Below are positions 10,701 through 56,174 of a stretch of 64,000 nucleotides of DNA, piece by piece. The stretch lies in the NCBI GenBank assembly GCA_029260595.1, contig JAJDCY010000023.1, positions 124,001 to 188,000 on the forward strand. The letters run 5' to 3'. This DNA comes from Phycisphaeraceae bacterium (lineage in GTDB: Bacteria > Planctomycetota > Phycisphaerae > Phycisphaerales > Phycisphaeraceae). Under the pieces are notes generated by a model. That model did no database searches. It worked only from the letters and a program-made list of their open reading frames with translations, and was not told where the DNA came from. Position numbers and translations under genes: made by a program. Each line of letters opens with the position of its first letter. Position 1 is the first letter of the stretch.

Positions 10701-11367
10701 GTGCATCGACGTGGCGCTGCGGCTGTTGCACCCGGTCATGCCGTTCATCACCGAACGCCTGTGGGAACGCCTCAACGAAGTCGCGCCCGACCGCGCCGCC
10801 AGTGTCTCCGGCATCACGATCCCCAGCAGCGACCTGCTGATCCGCGCAGCCTGGCCGGTGATGGATCAAACAAATCTGATCAACGACGAAGCCGAACAGT
10901 CATTCGCCTTGATCCAGGAGATATCAGGCACCGCGCGCGAGGTCCGCACCTCACACAAAGTCCCGCCAAGCGAAACACTATCAATCGCATTCGAGGGGCC
11001 GCAAGAAACGTTACAACCACTCTTGGCTCATCGCGGATTAATCGGAACGTTTGCCAATGCCAACGTGGACGATGCCGTCCCGGATTTCCCCGACGGCGCG
11101 ACGCCCGGAACTGGCTCGGCTGCCGGTGTGAAAGTGTTTGTCTACCGACCCGACGGCGGCCTCGTCGACAGCAACGCCGAGCGGGACCGCCTGATCAAGC
11201 AGCTCGAAGAACTCACCGCGACCGTCGAGCGCCTTCGCGGGCGCCTTGCGAGTAAGAGTTACGTGGACAAAGCCCCGGTCCACCTGGTGCAACAGACCCG
11301 CGACCAGATGGAAGCGGCCAGCCGCGAAGCCAGCGGGATCGAACAACAGCTCGCAGCACTGGCCTAG
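7777..11367 (+). CDS. valS: Valyl-tRNA synthetase with an in-frame RAYT transposase domain
   Basis: Charges tRNA-Val; class I enzyme with editing domain. The frame is 1196 residues, about 200 longer than expected. HIGH is HMGH at residues 53-56, RDWCISRQLWWGHRIPVW follows the insertion, and KMSKS is at 818-822. A C-terminal coiled coil (about 1130-1196, ERDRLIKQLEELTATVERL) is present. Between SDQWYVKVTDDRLRGAALRAM and the FHPPRYAKTFRTWHENL segment, where ordinary ValS has a short linker, about 200 residues are inserted that form a complete Y1 transposase domain (see 9030-9617). No stop or frameshift interrupts the gene. A less GC-rich segment (about 9770-9990) follows. The inserted domain has no obvious start or ribosome site of its own, so it is probably made as part of ValS. 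Confidence 0.95.
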   Translation: MTDELATKYDPADTEPRVAARWKQAGAFHADPAGAGAPYCIVIPPPNVTAALHMGHALNNTLQDILIRWRRMAGDNAVWIPGTDHAGIATQTVVEKRVLAEEGKKRTDFERDEFVAKIQAWKDEYEKRITEQLVEMGCSCDWERQRFTMDEMCATAVREAFFQLFKDGLIYRGKRLVNWDPATQTALADDEVEMREIDGHFWYLKYPLTEPVEIDGKRVDHVTVATTRPETMLGDTAVAVNPKDPRAAALVGKTIRLPIVNREIPIIADDYVVLADPDSDDPKAKYATGFLKVTPAHDPNDWEIGLRHGLPVINIMADDASISDQHGWPPEDFSAADPDAVPLGLDRYEAREAIVDWFRKNNLLEEVRPYRHSVGHSYRSHVPIEPYLSDQWYVKVTDDRLRGAALRAMAADDQASHETSPDREGGGSGDPPTGSETAYLITFTTYGTWLHGDDRGSIDTEKNDPGTARVPANPSFTNFERGKLKHPSIQLTEQQRQGVRDAIREVCHHRAWRLNACNVRTNHVHAVVTAIDSPEKVMNDFKAYATRCLAEQGLVESDRTMWTRHGSTRYLNEDASVIAACRYVLEEQGDDNIAVYSDGGLAASNPLPHGRGSLRTSPVDRAGWQGQLSFHPPRYAKTFRTWHENLRDWCISRQLWWGHRIPVWSKPRINPQDAHGIGAFFTQLIDWERAGRIAFPPPQPGLPFNSELHVHGQSLFICVLSEYDFEVIEAIEKEGYSRDPDVLDTWFSSALWPFSTLGWPDDTPELQTWNPGSVLCTAREIITLWVSRMVMFNLYFLDRLPFTDVFIHAMIQDGDGRKMSKSLGNGVDPLDIIHSHGSDAMRYTLAAMTTTTQDVRLPVVKDPDTGRNTSDKFDLGRNFANKLWNAARFALQNLEQPKTDAQAEATGDPDLANRWILSRLAATVNRANEALEGYEFSVYAQGLYDFFWRDLCDWYVEAVKPTVQTNPTQQRVLAACIDVALRLLHPVMPFITERLWERLNEVAPDRAASVSGITIPSSDLLIRAAWPVMDQTNLINDEAEQSFALIQEISGTAREVRTSHKVPPSETLSIAFEGPQETLQPLLAHRGLIGTFANANVDDAVPDFPDGATPGTGSAAGVKVFVYRPDGGLVDSNAERDRLIKQLEELTATVERLRGRLASKSYVDKAPVHLVQQTRDQMEAASREASGIEQQLAALA
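9030..9059 (+). repeat. Left inverted repeat of the RAYT unit
   Basis: A 30-bp arm containing GACCGTGAGGGAGGGGGTTC at its right end. It is the perfect reverse complement of 9588-9617. Bases just outside and inside the arm do not pair with those of the other arm. Upstream, CTCACG (9023-9028) can pair with CGTGAG (9042-9047), giving a small REP-like hairpin. Confidence 0.9.
9588..9617 (-). repeat. Right inverted repeat of the RAYT unit
   Basis: The 30-bp arm begins GAACCCCCTCCCTCACGGTC and ends GGGGCTCGTT. It mirrors 9030-9059 without a mismatch. In the valS frame it encodes NPLPHGRGSL. Confidence 0.9.
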
Positions 11368-11391
11368 GCGCTGTTCGATCAATCCGCGGTT

Positions 11392-11623
<232 letters not shown>

Positions 11624-15868: not shown

Positions 15869-16288
15869 CTACCTCGCCGGGCGGACCTGCAGCCGCCAAT
15901 CCACAGCCGTGTCGTCAAGGACCGCACCTTGCATGAAGTGCTGCACCCGGGCGGGCAGCCGCAGGTATCGCCAGCCCATCACGGGCTCGATCGGCCGCCC
16001 ATCCTGATCAAAAAACTCGAACCGGTACTGCGTGTTCAGTTCCTTGTCGGTGCGGGCTCGCACGGGCACCGAGACACTCATAGGCCGCCCCCCCCCCGCC
16101 TTGACGCTCGGAGGTGCAAAGGCCAGGTACTTGCCCAGCCCTTCCAGAGCCGTGATCTGGGGGTATGCGTCGGCCGACAACGGGTCCGGCTGGCCGGCGT
16201 CCGGGGGCATCGAGCCCTGACACCCGACCAAGAGCAGGCAACCCGACAACAAAATTCCCGTCACGGCTATTGATGCAAAACGGCGCAT
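15869..16288 (-). CDS. YcfL-like (DUF1425) lipoprotein
   Basis: A 139-residue lipoprotein. The true start is MRRFASIAVTGILLSG (ATG 16288). The lipobox LLLVGC puts the lipidated Cys at residue 23. The C-terminal half resembles YcfL/DUF1425: NTQYRFEFFDQDGRPIEP, WRYLRLPARVQHFMQGAVLDD. It is the last gene of a four-gene minus-strand operon and starts 10 bases after the previous stop. In E. coli ycfL stands next to lpoB, so the pairing with the LpoB-like genes upstream supports the call. The function is likely at the outer membrane/periplasm; details are unknown. Confidence 0.82.
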   Translation of the reverse strand: MRRFASIAVTGILLSGCLLLVGCQGSMPPDAGQPDPLSADAYPQITALEGLGKYLAFAPPSVKAGGGRPMSVSVPVRARTDKELNTQYRFEFFDQDGRPIEPVMGWRYLRLPARVQHFMQGAVLDDTAVDWRLQVRPAR

Positions 16289-16298
16289 CGGCAGATCC

Positions 16299-18065
16299 TC
16301 ATTCCTCGTGTGTGGTGACGCGGCCCGGACCGCCTGTGCGGCCCAGGAACTGCAACAGCCGCTCGGAGAGCGGCTCATAAGGCGTGTGTCGCTGCCCGAC
16401 TAATCTAGCAAAACCAGCCGTGCCAGCCAAGGGCGACGCCAGCGACCGGCCCCCCTCGAGTACGTGACGGTCCGCACCGAGTGCGTCCAGCCCATCTCGC
16501 CAGACGATCCCCTCGGCCTGATACAACTCCTGCAAATCTGCGATGCCGAGGCCCGCCAGCGTGGGATCAGTGTGGTACGACCACAGCACGGCAGGGTTGG
16601 GCGACCGGATGCACCAGCCACCCAGGATGTACGGCCGAACCGGTCCACCGTCACCACCAGTGTGCGAGCAAGCTCCTGACGCATCGTTGTCGTAAAAGAC
16701 CGCACCCGAAACAGTCCAGACAGGTGGAGGTACAGACCGTTCGCTGACTAAACGCACATACCGCAGTTGAATCGATCCCGACGGCGGCGGCGCGAGCCCG
16801 GCCAACACCATCCGCGATGCCGGCCGACCCCGCACCGAGACCTCAATCCGATCGTCGTCACCGCCCACATGAAGCGGCGCAAGGTAAACCCGTTGAGGCA
16901 ACACGTCGCAGAAACGAGTATCGACGTGGGCGCCGGCCTTGAGCAGCATCCCCACTGCCAGGACACCGAGGCCGGCATCGCGCGTCGAGCTCGACTTGCG
17001 ATGAAACCCGTCGTTGGCCGCGACCGCGCCGCCGATGAGCAACGCCGACCCGATCGCGCTCTTGGCCGTGCGGACGTCTTCGAGGTTGTTCCACATGTGG
17101 TCCGCAGCCATTCGATTCAGATCGCAGACAACCGGGTATTCCACGGTGGGCTCGTTGCCAACGCGGACTTGCAGCGGGTCCAGATCGCTGGCGTATCTCG
17201 GCACGAACCGCGCGAGCGCGCGGTCGGGCCCGTACCCAACCTTCTGCGGACCCAGCCCGTAGCTGACCACCAACACCGTGTTGTATTGCCCGGCCGAAAG
17301 CTCCTCGCATAACAGAGCCAGGTCGGGATCGATCGTCTCGACGGCGTTGAATGCCTCAGCCGCTTCCTCATCGCGCTGCAACTGCAACGCGGCTAAGCCG
17401 CGCATGAGGTAGCCAAGCGCGAAGTTGGACTCGCGCACCGTGTAACCGGTGCTCAGGTAGTCACGCGTTCCCCCGGCGGGGCCGCTCGTCGCCGAGCCGC
17501 CCTGCGCCTGCTGTCGCTCATACGCCATTGCCCGCTTCGCGATCGCGAGTGTGTCGATCCGTTGCCCATCGTCGTCCGTGCCGAAGTCGCGCAGGTGGAA
17601 CAGCGCGTTGCCCGCGGCGGCGCGCGCGTTGTCCCACCGGTCGAGGCTGGCCTGCTGGACGCTGTAGTAGAACATCGCCATCGCCTGCTCGAACGGCTCG
17701 CCCTTCCAGAACTTCAGATCCTCGTTGAGCACCACGGACGCGACGGTCTGATCGCGGTTGATCCCCTGCGTCCGCAGCGTTTCGTAGATCGACTCGAACA
17801 CAGGCTGCGATGCGTCGGCGTAACCGTCGGCAAGTGTCAGCACTGCCAGACGCAGCCGGTCGAGCAGATACCTGCGGTCTGAGCGATCCTCAACTAGCGT
17901 GCCGGCCACAATCGCACGCGCGTCGCCGTACTCTCCCGTGACCACCGCCGGCGTCAACGACACCGGCGGCGCGGCGCACGCAACTGGCAACGACAGCAGC
18001 GCAACGACCAACCAAAGTCGGCTGTGCGCTTTCCGATTGCGCTGATGAGTTTGATTGATCCACAT
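16299..18065 (-). CDS. COG3014-like lipoprotein with repeat-rich periplasmic body
   Basis: A 588-residue lipoprotein. I start at ATG 18065; the frame runs back to 18131, and ATG 18086 is an alternative. The lipobox LSLPVAC gives Cys 30. The body begins with helical, TPR-like stretches (RRYLLDRLRLAVLTLADGYA, EPFEQAMAMFYYSVQQASLDRWDNARAAAGNALFHL, ALGYLMRGLAALQLQRDEEAAEAFNAVE broken here), a pattern I associate with COG3014 proteins that neighbour YcfL and LpoB. A hydrophobic glycine stretch SAIGSALLIGGAVAANDG lies in the middle. It begins 11 bases after the stop of the preceding gene. A role in envelope or peptidoglycan synthase control is inferred from context only. Confidence 0.75.
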   Translation of the reverse strand: MWINQTHQRNRKAHSRLWLVVALLSLPVACAAPPVSLTPAVVTGEYGDARAIVAGTLVEDRSDRRYLLDRLRLAVLTLADGYADASQPVFESIYETLRTQGINRDQTVASVVLNEDLKFWKGEPFEQAMAMFYYSVQQASLDRWDNARAAAGNALFHLRDFGTDDDGQRIDTLAIAKRAMAYERQQAQGGSATSGPAGGTRDYLSTGYTVRESNFALGYLMRGLAALQLQRDEEAAEAFNAVETIDPDLALLCEELSAGQYNTVLVVSYGLGPQKVGYGPDRALARFVPRYASDLDPLQVRVGNEPTVEYPVVCDLNRMAADHMWNNLEDVRTAKSAIGSALLIGGAVAANDGFHRKSSSTRDAGLGVLAVGMLLKAGAHVDTRFCDVLPQRVYLAPLHVGGDDDRIEVSVRGRPASRMVLAGLAPPPSGSIQLRYVRLVSERSVPPPVWTVSGAVFYDNDASGACSHTGGDGGPVRPYILGGWCIRSPNPAVLWSYHTDPTLAGLGIADLQELYQAEGIVWRDGLDALGADRHVLEGGRSLASPLAGTAGFARLVGQRHTPYEPLSERLLQFLGRTGGPGRVTTHEE

Positions 18066-18076
18066 CGGCCTACCAG

Positions 18077-18676
18077 TTAGTCCCATACGTGCCCGCGTGC
18101 CTCGCGCTTGTACTCGAACCGGTCCGACCACACGACGGCGCTGGTCTCGATGTCGACGATCTGGAACTCGCAGTAGTACAACTCAGTGCGAGCCGTCGCG
18201 TCGGCCCGGGTCAACGACCGGAACGTCGGGATCAACTGGTGCGTCGGGCGCCGTTCGCTCGCGAACTCGGGGCTGTCGGCCGGGCCGAACCCGCCCGACG
18301 GGTCCGCGCGCATCCGTTCGACCTGCTCAACCGGGATCACCCAACGGATGTTTTTGGACTCACGCAGCGCCTCGATCGACAGCGACGAACGCACCCTGGC
18401 CACGACAGCCCATTGCTCGGACTCGGTCATCACGTCGCTGGATAGGTTGCGGATTTTGGTGATTGTGACGAGCCACGGAGCGCTTGAGGCGTCGCGCTCG
18501 GCCAACAAGTCCGACCGGGTCAGCGAGTCGGCGATCGACCGGCCGATCTGCTCAAGATCGTCGCCGGTCATACGGCTGTTGCGGGCCGGCGCGGCGCACG
18601 CGGCCAAGACACCCGCCGCCGCGATCACAGCAGCGCCGGACAATCGACAACCCACGCAACCGGGCACGGGGCCCAC
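18077..18676 (-). CDS. LpoB-like lipoprotein, second copy
   Basis: A 199-residue lipoprotein: signal SGAAVIAAAGVLAAC with lipid Cys at 27. The body has the LpoB-like order: DLEQIGRSIADSL, then WLVTITKIRNLSSDVM (compare the family's small beta strand GDLNNRT), VVARVRSSLSIEALRESKNIRWV, and YYCEFQIVDIETSAVVWSDRFEYKRE near the end. The start is GTG at 18676, which shares one base with the TAG stop of the gene before it (TAGTG), with AGGA upstream, so translation is probably coupled. In proteobacteria LpoB activates PBP1b; whether that partner applies here cannot be seen. Confidence 0.78.
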   Translation of the reverse strand: MGPVPGCVGCRLSGAAVIAAAGVLAACAAPARNSRMTGDDLEQIGRSIADSLTRSDLLAERDASSAPWLVTITKIRNLSSDVMTESEQWAVVARVRSSLSIEALRESKNIRWVIPVEQVERMRADPSGGFGPADSPEFASERRPTHQLIPTFRSLTRADATARTELYYCEFQIVDIETSAVVWSDRFEYKREARGHVWD

Positions 18677-19281
18677 TAGGGCTTTTCCTGCTTCACGTCG
18701 TACCGCTTGGAGAACACGATCTCGTTGGTCTTGAAGTGCACCAGTTGGAACTCCATGTAGTACTGGTTGACGCTCCCTCGCCGCCCGATGCGGTAAAAGT
18801 CACCGTTCAGCGCGAACGCCGAGTCCGGGTCGTGTTGTGTCTGTGACGGTGCGGCGGCACCGAGTTCGCGCTCGCGTAAGTAGTCCATCCGCGCGCGGCT
18901 CTCGACGAATCGCAGCCGGTCGCGCACGTACCGGCTCTGCAGCAGGCTGTTGCGCACGCGGCTGCGGATCAGCTCGAACTCGTCCGATGAGATGTTGCCG
19001 GTCCGGTTGTTCAGATCGCCCATCACAATCGTCGCCCGCCCGGGCAACTCCTGGATCGCCGGGATATCCGCCAGATCCTGAACAAGCGCCTGCGGCACCT
19101 GATCGCTGAACTCAAGCAGCGCGACGGGCAACACGCGTGTCGACCGGACCTCGGCGTCGGTGGTAACGGACGTGTCGACCCTGCCGGAGCGGTGACCGAC
19201 CGGCGGCGTATCGCATCCCGACACAGCCAGCAGACCCACCAGGATCGTCAATACGCACAGCGGCGCGAAGCGGTTAGTCAT
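18676..19281 (-). CDS. LpoB-like penicillin-binding protein activator lipoprotein
   Basis: A 201-residue lipoprotein and first gene of the operon. Signal CVLTILVGLLAVSGC gives lipid Cys 23. The LpoB signature core is clear: ATIVMGDLNNRTGNISSDEFELIRSRVRNSLLQSRYVRDRLRFVE, broken only for description, and the final strand-rich NQYYMEFQLVHFKTNEIVFSKRYDVKQEKP. ATG 19281 has GGAG nine bases before it. The next gene begins inside its stop codon. The family acts from the outer membrane on bifunctional peptidoglycan synthases; in a planctomycete this is noteworthy because the group was long thought to have unusual cell walls. Confidence 0.82.
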   Translation of the reverse strand: MTNRFAPLCVLTILVGLLAVSGCDTPPVGHRSGRVDTSVTTDAEVRSTRVLPVALLEFSDQVPQALVQDLADIPAIQELPGRATIVMGDLNNRTGNISSDEFELIRSRVRNSLLQSRYVRDRLRFVESRARMDYLRERELGAAAPSQTQHDPDSAFALNGDFYRIGRRGSVNQYYMEFQLVHFKTNEIVFSKRYDVKQEKP

Positions 19282-19563: not shown

Positions 19564-20253
19564 TCACTTGCGACGCCTGATCCTCGTGCCCAACGCGGCC
19601 AAGCCGAGCAGGCCCAGCCCAGCCGTCGCCGGCTCCGGCACAGCGATCTGGAACGTCAGGTTGTCAATCGTGAATGTCTCTTGAACAGACCCGGTCGCAC
19701 GGATCTCGATCTCGGTCGTGTTGGCGGGTGTGCCGAACCCTAAAAACCCCGTGAAGTTCGGCACATCGATCTTCTCACCCATCACCCAGATCTCCAAGCC
19801 GCCTTCGTTGACCTGGCCGAAGTCCGCCGCGAAGGCGTTGATCGGTCGGCTAAACACGATGCGGTTGTACTGGTTCGTCGGTGAAGAACTCGGGTCGGAC
19901 GGCGATGGCGGCACGTCCGGACCGTTCACTTTACCGACAAAGGTGCGCGTGCTCAGTGAAGACGAGCCCAGCTTGCCGAGCATGATCCCGCCCGAGTTGG
20001 CATCGGCTTCGAACGTCACCACGACGTCACCGAATGAACCCGTGGGAACGACGCGATCAGCGGAACCGCCACCGGTTGGCAGCTCGATCGGCGGAAAGAT
20101 CAGGTTGAAGTCTTCGATCCCGGTCTTGGCCGGTTCCAGGCGAGCCATGAACGCCGACCGCGATGTGATCGGCGTAAGCCCCGCCTCAGCCACAGGGGCG
20201 ATCATCGCGATCATCGCCACGGCCAGGATTGTTTTCATTGCATTCGTTCGCAT
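19564..20253 (-). CDS. PEP-CTERM protein of unknown function
   Basis: A 229-residue secreted protein. Signal peptide KTILAVAMIAMIAPVAEA, then a beta-rich body with many Ser/Thr/Gly (TGIEDFNLIFPP, RIVFSRPINAFAADFGQVNEGGLEIWVMG, TFTIDNLTFQIA), and the sorting tail VPEPATAGLGLLGLAALGTRIRRRK. The body looks like a small jelly-roll of the kind common in PEP-CTERM proteins; I cannot name a function. ATG 20253 has AGGAG seven bases upstream. The hairpin TTCCCG / CGGGAA lies just before that ribosome site. Transcription may begin more than 550 bases upstream at the promoter near 20820. Confidence 0.85.
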   Translation of the reverse strand: MRTNAMKTILAVAMIAMIAPVAEAGLTPITSRSAFMARLEPAKTGIEDFNLIFPPIELPTGGGSADRVVPTGSFGDVVVTFEADANSGGIMLGKLGSSSLSTRTFVGKVNGPDVPPSPSDPSSSPTNQYNRIVFSRPINAFAADFGQVNEGGLEIWVMGEKIDVPNFTGFLGFGTPANTTEIEIRATGSVQETFTIDNLTFQIAVPEPATAGLGLLGLAALGTRIRRRK

Positions 20254-20469
20254 CTGCCTGCTCCTCTTCTTTCCCGATTGGCGAACCGGGAACCCTCACT
20301 CCCTCGCGCAGAATCAGCCGCGCGTGACGGCATCAAGCCTTCCATCCCATTGGCTGGGCACCGATCCGGTGCATACCCGTGCAAAGCGTCAGCCCTGTGG
20401 GCGGCGGGGCCACTCCTTAACCCCATACCAGCGTTAAATTGTCGATCCGATCTTTCCCATCCAAGGGCG
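20254..20469 (-). other. Rest of the leader before the PEP-CTERM gene
   Basis: No open frame is convincing here. On the minus strand GCACC/GGUGC around GGAUC (about 20361-20375) and TTCCCG/CGGGAA (about 20271-20292) can form hairpins; the latter touches the ribosome site region. No T-run terminator separates this from the structured region upstream, so it may belong to one long leader. Confidence 0.45.
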
Positions 20470-20815
20470 GGACTCGTATCGTCACGAGCCGTATCCAGCG
20501 GTTCGAGATACGCTTACGCGCATCTCAATCGGGGGGCCTGGCAATCCTTGAAGCGGCGTTGGTTATGTCCGGGCAAGGATTCCGGGGGGTTCTAGCGTCT
20601 CACGCTCCTGTAGCGGTTCCTGGCATGCTTGTGGCCATCAGCCACGGTGGGGGTACTGTCGAAACTCGATCAGCACCATGTAGCGGGATCTTTCAACCGT
20701 CCAAACCTAAGGCGGGGCTCTCTCGTCTTCCGAATCTCTCTGGGATTCCTAGTCTTATGTCCCCATCTCTACCGGCAGGACCGAATCCCTAGGGACTCGG
20801 CTATTTGGTAAGCAC
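20470..20815 (-). ncRNA. Candidate structured RNA or long leader of unknown class
   Basis: Eight hairpins follow one another on the minus strand: CCGAGUCCC/GGGAUUCGG (20781-20800), GAAUC/GAUUC (20732-20748), a 12-pair stem GGUGCUG..CAGUACC with inner UCGA/UCGA (20652-20677), GUGGC/GCCAC (20631-20645), AGCGU/ACGCU (20594-20606), AAUCCUUG/CAAGGAUU (20543-20581), GAGAUGCGC/GCGUAUCUC closed by a GUAA tetraloop (20505-20526), CUCGU/ACGAG (20473-20488). Three stems contain G-U pairs that would become A-C mismatches on the plus strand, so the minus strand is the likely RNA. A near-consensus promoter precedes it. I looked for conserved boxes of RNase P, tmRNA, SRP, cobalamin and c-di-GMP RNAs and did not recognise any. 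Confidence 0.5.
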
Positions 20816-20819
20816 TTGT

Positions 20820-20848
20820 TTTATACCCTATCAGGGGGGGTGTGTCAA
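20820..20848 (-). promoter_or_regulatory. Near-consensus sigma-70 promoter
   Basis: On the minus strand TTGACA (20843-20848) and TATAAA (20820-20825) lie 17 bases apart. The region just upstream (20850-20940) is AT-rich like an UP element. This is the best promoter match in the window. It faces the structured region and the PEP-CTERM gene. Confidence 0.75.
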
Positions 20849-20979
20849 TACTTTGGAAAGGGGATTTGCGAAAATATTCAAAATATGCCGGTTACAACTG
20901 GGTGTTAAAATAGGTATTTTTAAGCGGTTTTCGTTTCGTGCCTCCGTAGCACACACCGCTGCCCGCTTATCACAAACCC

Positions 20980-38371: not shown

Positions 38372-38921
38372 GCCATCATCCTCGGATGAGCCGGGGCGAG
38401 CCCGACAGGGTTGTGCTCGAAATCCGCGGCCGATCACCGCGGCGCCAGATTGCCTCCATCGGGCGATTCTAGGCGTCGTTGGTACCCGCGACAAACTTGA
38501 ACGCGCAGCCGCGTCCCAGTCCGGGTATCGGCACAACCCACGGTGCCCGATTAGCTGACCGGGCGCACAGCTTGCACTCGCGACAGCCTCAGCCACCGAT
38601 CCAGCGCACACCTATCAAACCGCCAACGGTTTACGACGCCGCGCCCGACTATACGGCCCGAGCCTACCGCGCGCATTAATACCCAAAGACCGATAAAGCC
38701 GGATATTCGGTGTAGTACGGCACCACCTACAATCAGACACCCGGACCAACCATCGCCCGCACCATCCCCCCACGGGCACCGCGATCACCCCCGTGATGAT
38801 CAGCCAAAACGCGATCCGCTTGCATCAACGGGCAGCCGGCAGTCATCGCGGCCGTATCTTGATGACCACATAAGCGATCGCAAAGGCGTACAGGATCGTT
38901 TCTCTCTACCAAGTTCCTAGA
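38372..38921. other. 550-base gap upstream of clpC
   Basis: No complete gene. On the minus strand two hydrophobic stretches in one frame, ILYAFAIAYVVIKIRPR (ending at 38843) and FWLIITGVIAVPVGG (about 38809 down), are separated by stop codons; they could be the remains of a small membrane protein. The clpC promoter should be here but no box pair stands out. Confidence 0.4.
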
Positions 38922-54453: not shown

Positions 54454-55170
54454 ATGAGGCGACCAAGAGCATTCACGTTGATTGAATTGCTGGTGGTTAT
54501 TTCGATCATCGCTTTGCTGATCGGCATCCTGCTGCCGGCACTGGGGGCCGCGAGACGCACGGCCCGACAGATGCAAAGCTCAACCCAGGTCCGGGGCATC
54601 CACAACGCCCTGGTCACCTACGCCCAGGGGAATAAGTCGTACTTCCCCGGCATCCTGCCGACCGGTCTGCTCGACCCGGGTAATACCGCGCCGGGCAACC
54701 ACTATCAGCAGCTGCTCGAACGCGGCTTTTTCCCCGGCGAGTACTCCCTGTCGCCGGCGGACGTAAAGCAGACGTGGACCAGCGGTGCCGTCACCACGAG
54801 TAACTACTCGTACTCGATGCTATCGATCGACCGCACCGGCAACGTCGCGCCGGAGGGTGCCGAATGGCAGGACACGATCAACACGGACGCGATCGTGCTC
54901 AGCGACCGGGGTATCGGCACGTCGGCGGCCGACGCACGAAGCGTCTGGACCAACGACCCAACCGAAGGGTGGCGTGGAACGGTTGGCTGGAACGACAACC
55001 ATGTGTCGTTCGAGTCCGCCCATGACGGGCTGACGTCGTCCTACGGCGACGACCCGGTCAACGATGGCGACGACGACCTGTTCCTCGATGACGAAGCCAG
55101 CTTGGGCGACGCGCTGATGGTCTACAGCGGCCCCGGACCGGCTCAGACCGACGTCATCGCTTCCGACTGA
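54454..55170 (+). CDS. Pseudopilin-like protein, tandem copy B1
   Basis: 238 residues. Prepilin leader [20 protein letters not shown], then [19 protein letters not shown]. Body blocks [40 protein letters not shown] and [11 protein letters not shown] are shared with the next two genes. AAGGAG precedes the ATG. A two-part hairpin follows the gene. The family appears to be a lineage-specific surface or secretion pseudopilin; function unknown. Confidence 0.9.
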   Translation: MRRPRAFTLIELLVVISIIALLIGILLPALGAARRTARQMQSSTQVRGIHNALVTYAQGNKSYFPGILPTGLLDPGNTAPGNHYQQLLERGFFPGEYSLSPADVKQTWTSGAVTTSNYSYSMLSIDRTGNVAPEGAEWQDTINTDAIVLSDRGIGTSAADARSVWTNDPTEGWRGTVGWNDNHVSFESAHDGLTSSYGDDPVNDGDDDLFLDDEASLGDALMVYSGPGPAQTDVIASD

Positions 55171-55201
55171 TCGACGCAGCATGATTTAACGAACATCAGG
55201 T

Positions 55202-55252
55202 CCACCCCGGCTGCCGCAACGCGGCCGGGGTGGGCTTGATCGTTTGATCAAG
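55202..55252 (+). terminator. Double hairpin after copy B1
   Basis: CCACCCCGGC pairs with GCCGGGGTGG (55202-55233), and directly after it CTTGATC pairs with GATCAAG (55235-55252). No long T run follows, so it may stop or stall transcription or protect the message end. Confidence 0.55.
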
Positions 55253-55469
55253 TTGTAAGGCTCACGATAGGCGGCGGGGGCCCGGCAGGGCCGATTTGCC
55301 CGCATTCGGCCCTCATGGCCGGGCGTCGTCGATCCAAGGTTCACCAAGAACCTGCGTAAGACCATCTAAAACCGACTTTTAAAGAAGATTTGTCGCGGGC
55401 GTCGTAGCCGCCGGACAAATGGAATCCTATGATTATCTATTTCCATCTTTCTTTTGCGGAGTTCACATC

Positions 55470-56174
55470 ATGTTGCGGAGAACCGGCTTTACGCTGATCG
55501 AGTTGTTGGTGGTGATATCCATCATCGCGTTGTTGATCGGGATCCTGCTGCCCGCGTTGGGCATGGCCCGCAAGACGGCGCGCCAGATGCAAAGCTCCAC
55601 CCAGGTCCGTGGGATCCACAACGCCCTGGTCACCTTCGCCCAAGGCAACAAGTCCTATTACCCGGGGCTCAACTCGGACGGCGCGTTGGAGGCCGGCGGG
55701 CTTTACGCACCGCCGCACAACTACGAACGCCTCCTTTTGGCCGGCTTCTTCCCCGGCGAATACGCGATATCACCCGTCGACGTCAAGGCCACCTGGACCA
55801 GCGGCACGGTTTCGACCCAAAATTTTTCCTATTCGATGCTCTCGATCCAACAGACCGCGGAACAAGCTGAGTGGCAGGACACCATCAACACGGACGCGAT
55901 CGTGCTGAGTGATCGGGGGATCGGCACGTCGCACGTCACGGCGCTGAGTGTCTGGACCGGGGACCCCTCGGAGGGGTGGCGTGGCAGCGTCGGCTGGAAC
56001 GACAACCATGTGTCCTTTGAGCCCGCAAGGGACAGCCCGACCACCGCCTACGGTTCTGACCCGGTCAATGACAACGACCACCTGTTCGGGGACAACCATC
56101 CCGATCTAGGCGACGCGTTTATGGTTTACGGCGGACCCGGCCCGGCGATCGGGGACGTCCTCGCTGCCGACTGA
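55470..56174 (+). CDS. Pseudopilin-like protein, tandem copy B2
   Basis: 234 residues from ATG 55470 (GGAG upstream); a longer frame to 55419 lacks support. Leader [21 protein letters not shown]. The first 230 or so bases are nearly identical to those of copy B3 (56354), while the 3' parts differ more. Body with [44 protein letters not shown] and [16 protein letters not shown]. Confidence 0.9.
   Translation: MLRRTGFTLIELLVVISIIALLIGILLPALGMARKTARQMQSSTQVRGIHNALVTFAQGNKSYYPGLNSDGALEAGGLYAPPHNYERLLLAGFFPGEYAISPVDVKATWTSGTVSTQNFSYSMLSIQQTAEQAEWQDTINTDAIVLSDRGIGTSHVTALSVWTGDPSEGWRGSVGWNDNHVSFEPARDSPTTAYGSDPVNDNDHLFGDNHPDLGDAFMVYGGPGPAIGDVLAAD

What the first reader, a model, noticed from the sequence alone, without database searches (positions are those of the whole stretch)
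20470..20848. Candidate new structured RNA behind a near-consensus promoter
TTGACA-17-TATAAA on the minus strand is followed by at least eight consecutive hairpins in 350 bases, one with a GUAA tetraloop and one 12 pairs long. G-U pairs occur only in the sense matching the promoter. No conserved box of a known large RNA was recognised, and no protein frame is convincing. It may be a stand-alone RNA or a large leader controlling the PEP-CTERM gene.
Basis: partly seen in the sequence, partly recalled or inferred. Interest (0 to 1): 0.8.

Follow-up and report, generated by a model that had tools for sequence, protein, structure and literature searches.

The report
Orphan structured RNA behind strong promoter
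A 350-base stretch between two genes of a planctomycete bacterium looks like a transcribed, hairpin-rich non-coding RNA or mRNA leader, but no relative carries it, so the structure cannot be confirmed by evolution and it may matter only to this lineage.

Summary
On the minus strand TTGACA-17-TATAAA (20848-20820) is the only site matching TTGACA-N16-18-TATAAW in the whole 2.88 Mb genome. About eight hairpins follow between 20813 and 20471, including the GUAA-loop hairpin. The 3' two thirds (20690-20465) fold better than shuffles on the minus strand (z -3.4) and not on the plus strand (z -0.8). The whole element reaches only about -1.8 to -2.7, and about 1% of arbitrary tiles of this window reach -3.3, so folding alone proves nothing. 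No frame looks coding. No Rfam family matches, and RNase P and tmRNA lie elsewhere in the genome.

Conservation, the decisive test, could not be scored. blastn finds nothing real in 100 relatives or 396 genomes of the class, and a single-sequence covariance model finds nothing in 50 family or 399 order genomes. tmRNA, as control, is found in 94 of 101. The thiG downstream regions of relatives hold nothing similar. The element is therefore an orphan of this lineage. No terminator was found before the PEP-CTERM gene, so the best reading is a long structured 5' leader, or a stand-alone RNA. A new, widespread RNA class is not supported.

The parts
20820..20848 (-). sigma-70-type promoter TTGACA-17-TATAAA
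   Evidence: only >=11/12 site in the window, shuffles mean 0.00; only TTGACA-N16-18-TATAAW in the genome
20849..20928 (-). A+T-rich stretch upstream of the -35 box (possible UP element; inference)
   Evidence: A+T 0.55-0.75 in 20-nt steps, next to regions of 0.60 or more G+C
20717..20813 (-). 5' domain with two competing folds: a local 9-bp hairpin (about 20801-20780), or the nested helices 20800-20791/20739-20730 and 20789-20783/20748-20742
   Evidence: fold of the growing transcript changes between 80 and 90 nt; -30.8 against -20.7 kcal/mol with 30-nt pair span; 20813-20690 has z only -1.18
20465..20690 (-). structured core: row of local hairpins
   Evidence: z -3.37 minus, -0.79 plus; pair probabilities
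20652..20677 (-). 11-bp hairpin GGUGCUGAUCGA-GUU-UCGACAGUACC
   Evidence: mean pair probability 0.97
20538..20585 (-). 11-bp hairpin with inner 4-bp helix
   Evidence: mean pair probability 0.91 and 0.87
20503..20528 (-). 11-bp hairpin with GUAA tetraloop
   Evidence: mean pair probability 0.97
20471..20490 (-). 8-bp hairpin, last element of the structured stretch
   Evidence: mean pair probability 0.75
20254..20464 (-). unstructured stretch between the core and the PEP-CTERM start codon; no intrinsic terminator or good second promoter found
   Evidence: z +1.08; terminator scan; best promoter-like site 8/12
19564..20253 (-). PEP-CTERM protein gene, the first gene downstream on the same strand
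   Evidence: Pfam PF07589, E 1.8e-6 at residues 204-228

Best explanation
A non-coding transcript starts near 20813 from a strong sigma-70 promoter and carries a discrete structured domain of about 350 nt (20813-20465). No terminator separates it from the co-directional PEP-CTERM gene, so it most likely forms the structured 5' part of a 560-nt leader of that mRNA. Inferred mechanism: the domain stabilises the mRNA or modulates its expression by folding. The 5' domain first forms a local hairpin and then refolds as more RNA emerges, and a C-run of the core (20536-20531) may weakly pair with the ribosome-binding site at 20264-20260. Shown here: the promoter match, the strand-biased fold, the absence of coding signal and the absence of relatives. 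Transcription, the link to the gene and any regulation are inference.
For: Promoter unique in the genome; strand-biased fold; structure ends at about 20465 and the next 211 nt are unstructured; no open minus frame, and the 117-aa plus ORF has GC3 0.53 against 0.76-0.85 in six neighbouring genes; no terminator-like site on the minus strand; gene on the same strand with PEP-CTERM signal; two-state 5' domain; predicted SD pairing.
Against: No comparative support at all. The fold z-score is reached by about 1% of arbitrary tiles of the window, and the boundaries were chosen after looking. The SD pairing is four isolated pairs in a 614-nt fold and is weak. Transcripts of this phylum may end by Rho, so absence of an intrinsic terminator does not prove read-through.
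Confidence: 0.42

Rival explanations
1. A stand-alone ncRNA of about 350 nt, made from its own strong promoter and ended by Rho or by processing near 20465; the C-rich single-stranded linkers between hairpins could contact G-rich ribosome-binding sites of other mRNAs.
For: Strong unique promoter; sharp end of the structured stretch; three C-runs of 5-6 between hairpins at 20653-20649, 20589-20584 and 20536-20531.
Against: No terminator; a co-directional gene follows; no second promoter better than 8/12 for that gene; no target evidence.
Confidence: 0.3
2. No functional RNA: an ordinary intergenic spacer in which chance hairpins lie behind a real or chance promoter; the PEP-CTERM gene merely has a long leader.
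For: No conservation anywhere; whole-element z only -1.8 to -2.7; 6 of 564 tiles fold as well; the strongest tile covers a gene end and plain spacer between pilin-like genes.
Against: Strand bias of the core (-3.4 against -0.8); coincidence with the only TTGACA/TATAAW site of the genome.
Confidence: 0.24
3. Remnant of a mobile element or a DNA-level structure such as a recombination site inserted downstream of thiG.
For: Absent from the same place in relatives; G+C 0.58, somewhat below the 0.60-0.67 of the genes around it.
Against: Single copy in the genome; no match in plasmids or phages; no direct repeats, and only one short palindrome; viral matches share only the 16-mer.
Confidence: 0.04

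Closest known systems
Structured 5' leaders / long 5' UTRs of bacterial mRNAs (general kind)
   Same: sigma-70 promoter, structured non-coding stretch, co-directional gene without intervening terminator
   Different: no known ligand pocket, no conserved core, no relatives, no shown regulation
Species- or genus-restricted sRNAs of bacteria (general kind)
   Same: strong promoter in an intergenic region, hairpin-rich, no homologues outside the lineage
   Different: longer than most, no intrinsic terminator, no expression data
RNase P RNA (RF00010) and tmRNA (RF00023)
   Same: length of about 350 nt
   Different: both are present elsewhere in the genome; no Rfam match here
Candidate Rhodopirellula-1 motif of Weinberg et al. 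2010 (PMC2864571)
   Same: listed for Planctomycetes as a possible cis-regulator, with no Rfam accession in that table
   Different: only the table entry could be read; not compared

Membership tests
Any Rfam 15 family | score to a covariance model | tested here: not met
   no gathering match in the window; none up to E 5 in 20300-20950
RNase P RNA | match to RF00010 | tested here: not met
   genome's only match is at C11:71-494, 208.5 bits
tmRNA | match to RF00023 / ARAGORN | tested here: not met
   best match C24:95303-95683, 150.7 bits; ARAGORN none in the window
Structured RNA class supported by comparative genomics | homologues with compensatory base changes | tested here: inconclusive
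   no homologue found, so covariation cannot be scored; tmRNA control 94/101
Structured 5' leader | promoter, structured stretch and co-directional gene with no terminator between | tested here: met
   (sequence features only)
Structured 5' leader | one continuous transcript with the gene | not testable with these tools
   needs RNA-seq or RT-PCR
Riboswitch | conserved ligand-binding core | tested here: not met
   no Rfam riboswitch match; no relatives from which to see a core
Protein-coding gene | open frame with codon bias of the genome | tested here: not met
   all minus frames have stops; plus ORF GC3 0.53 against 0.76-0.85; no Pfam match

The most novel reading that the evidence does not exclude
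A genus-restricted, highly expressed structured RNA of about 350 nt of a kind not in Rfam, with a 5' domain that refolds during transcription and a row of hairpins joined by C-rich linkers.
Probability: 0.25. Interest if true: 0.5.

Novelty: new member of a known kind. Interest (0 to 1): 0.3.

Why it matters
Few non-coding RNAs seem to be described in Planctomycetota (my limited literature searches found one table entry). If real, this would be a strongly transcribed orphan RNA or leader in front of a surface-protein gene, and a clear example of how a lineage-restricted RNA escapes comparative discovery. If not, it shows that good folds behind good promoters occur in G+C-rich spacers without conservation.

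Tried and rejected
Rfam, gathering and E up to 5: nothing. Missing RNase P or tmRNA: both found elsewhere. blastn in relatives: the single weak match G005 (E 0.003, 28 nt) lies inside a long open frame and was rejected as chance. thiG-anchored loci from two collections: nothing similar and no shared downstream genes. PEP-CTERM-anchored search: no homologue in 100 relatives. Single-sequence covariance model R1 of 20610-20465: only itself. Viral contigs with the GUAA-hairpin 16-mer: 8 matches, flanks unrelated. Plasmids and phages: none. Second copy of the leader in the genome: none convincing. Literature: one relevant paper.

Full report
What was claimed. A near-consensus promoter on the minus strand followed by about eight hairpins, with no protein frame and no known RNA, was proposed as a new structured RNA or a large leader of the PEP-CTERM gene.

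The promoter is real as a sequence. TTGACA-17-TATAAA lies at 20848-20820 on the minus strand. It is the only site with 11 or more of 12 consensus matches in the 64-kb window, while 30 dinucleotide shuffles average 0.00. The pattern TTGACA-N16-18-TATAAW occurs once in the whole 2,876,150-base genome, here, and its reversed control not at all. For comparison, the best promoter-like site in front of the genome's own tmRNA matches 9/12. Upstream of the -35 box the DNA is A+T-rich.

The fold is moderate. The minus strand 20813-20470 folds at -118.5 kcal/mol, z -2.67. A second boundary choice gives -1.82. The signal sits in 20690-20465 (z -3.37, 0 of 200 shuffles as good), and on the plus strand it is -0.79. 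The 5' part alone (z -1.18) and the 211 nt towards the gene (z +1.08) have none. Restricting pairs to 60 nt gives -3.51 against -1.40, but 6 of 564 tiles of the window reach -3.3 or lower. The genome's tmRNA scores -2.40 on its own strand and -2.41 on the other, so such scores neither prove nor exclude an RNA. The statement that G-U pairs occur only in the promoter's sense is not exact, because plus-strand stems with G-U pairs are also predicted.

It is not a protein gene. All three minus frames contain several stops. The longest plus ORF (20439-20792) has GC by codon position 0.61/0.58/0.53, whereas six neighbouring genes have GC3 0.76-0.85. It matches no Pfam family.

It is not a known RNA. 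There is no Rfam 15 match in the window at gathering scores, and none at E up to 5 in 20300-20950. RNase P RNA and tmRNA are elsewhere in the genome.

It has no relatives in what could be searched. blastn of 20860-20450 against 100 relatives (50 of the same family, 50 of the same order) gave one 28-nt match that lies inside a long open frame. A class-wide sample of 397 genomes gave only the window itself. A covariance model of 20610-20465 found only itself in 51 family and 400 order genomes; built from one sequence, it is weak. The control is clear: the genome's tmRNA, of similar length, is found in 94 of 101 of the same genomes by the same method. Regions next to thiG, from the relatives search and from GTDB genomes (best ThiG identity 82%), hold nothing similar and none of the window's downstream genes. 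No genome of the same genus turned up, so a genus-restricted RNA cannot be tested for covariation. Plasmids, phages and viral contigs gave nothing.

Reading. A transcript from 20813 would run through the structured stretch and, as no terminator-like site is found on that strand and no second promoter better than 8/12 lies before the gene, into the PEP-CTERM gene. The most economical view is a 560-nt leader with a structured 5' domain. A stand-alone RNA ended by Rho or by processing is nearly as likely. Two features may bear on mechanism, both inferred: the 5' domain first forms a local hairpin (-13.9 kcal/mol at 35 nt) and refolds into two nested long-range helices once about 90 nt are made; and a C-run between two hairpins is predicted to pair, through four isolated pairs, with the ribosome-binding site. 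The second is weak.

Verdict. A plausible but unproven orphan RNA of one lineage. The interpretation as a new structured RNA class lacks the comparative evidence that defines such classes.

Noticed in passing
window 54454-56174: Two tandem pilin-like (prepilin N-terminal motif [25 protein letters not shown]) paralogues, 54454-55170 and 55419-56174, with a strong hairpin in the spacer near 55204-55236; this tile has the best local-fold z-score of the window (-4.6 plus, -3.6 minus).
   Followed up: partly
window 15869-19281: Minus-strand set of likely lipoprotein genes downstream of the PEP-CTERM gene: LpoB-like proteins (PF13036, 18676-19281 above cut-off; 18077-18676 weak), a TPR-like protein (weak) and a DUF1425 protein (15869-16378).
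   Followed up: partly
window 38421-38646 (+) and 11301-11526 (-): Two more tiles with local-fold z near -3.9, not examined.
   Followed up: no
loci L005, L006, L007: Weak sub-threshold tmRNA-model matches of 66-94 nt elsewhere in the genome, probably tRNA genes or tRNA-like fragments; not examined.
   Followed up: no
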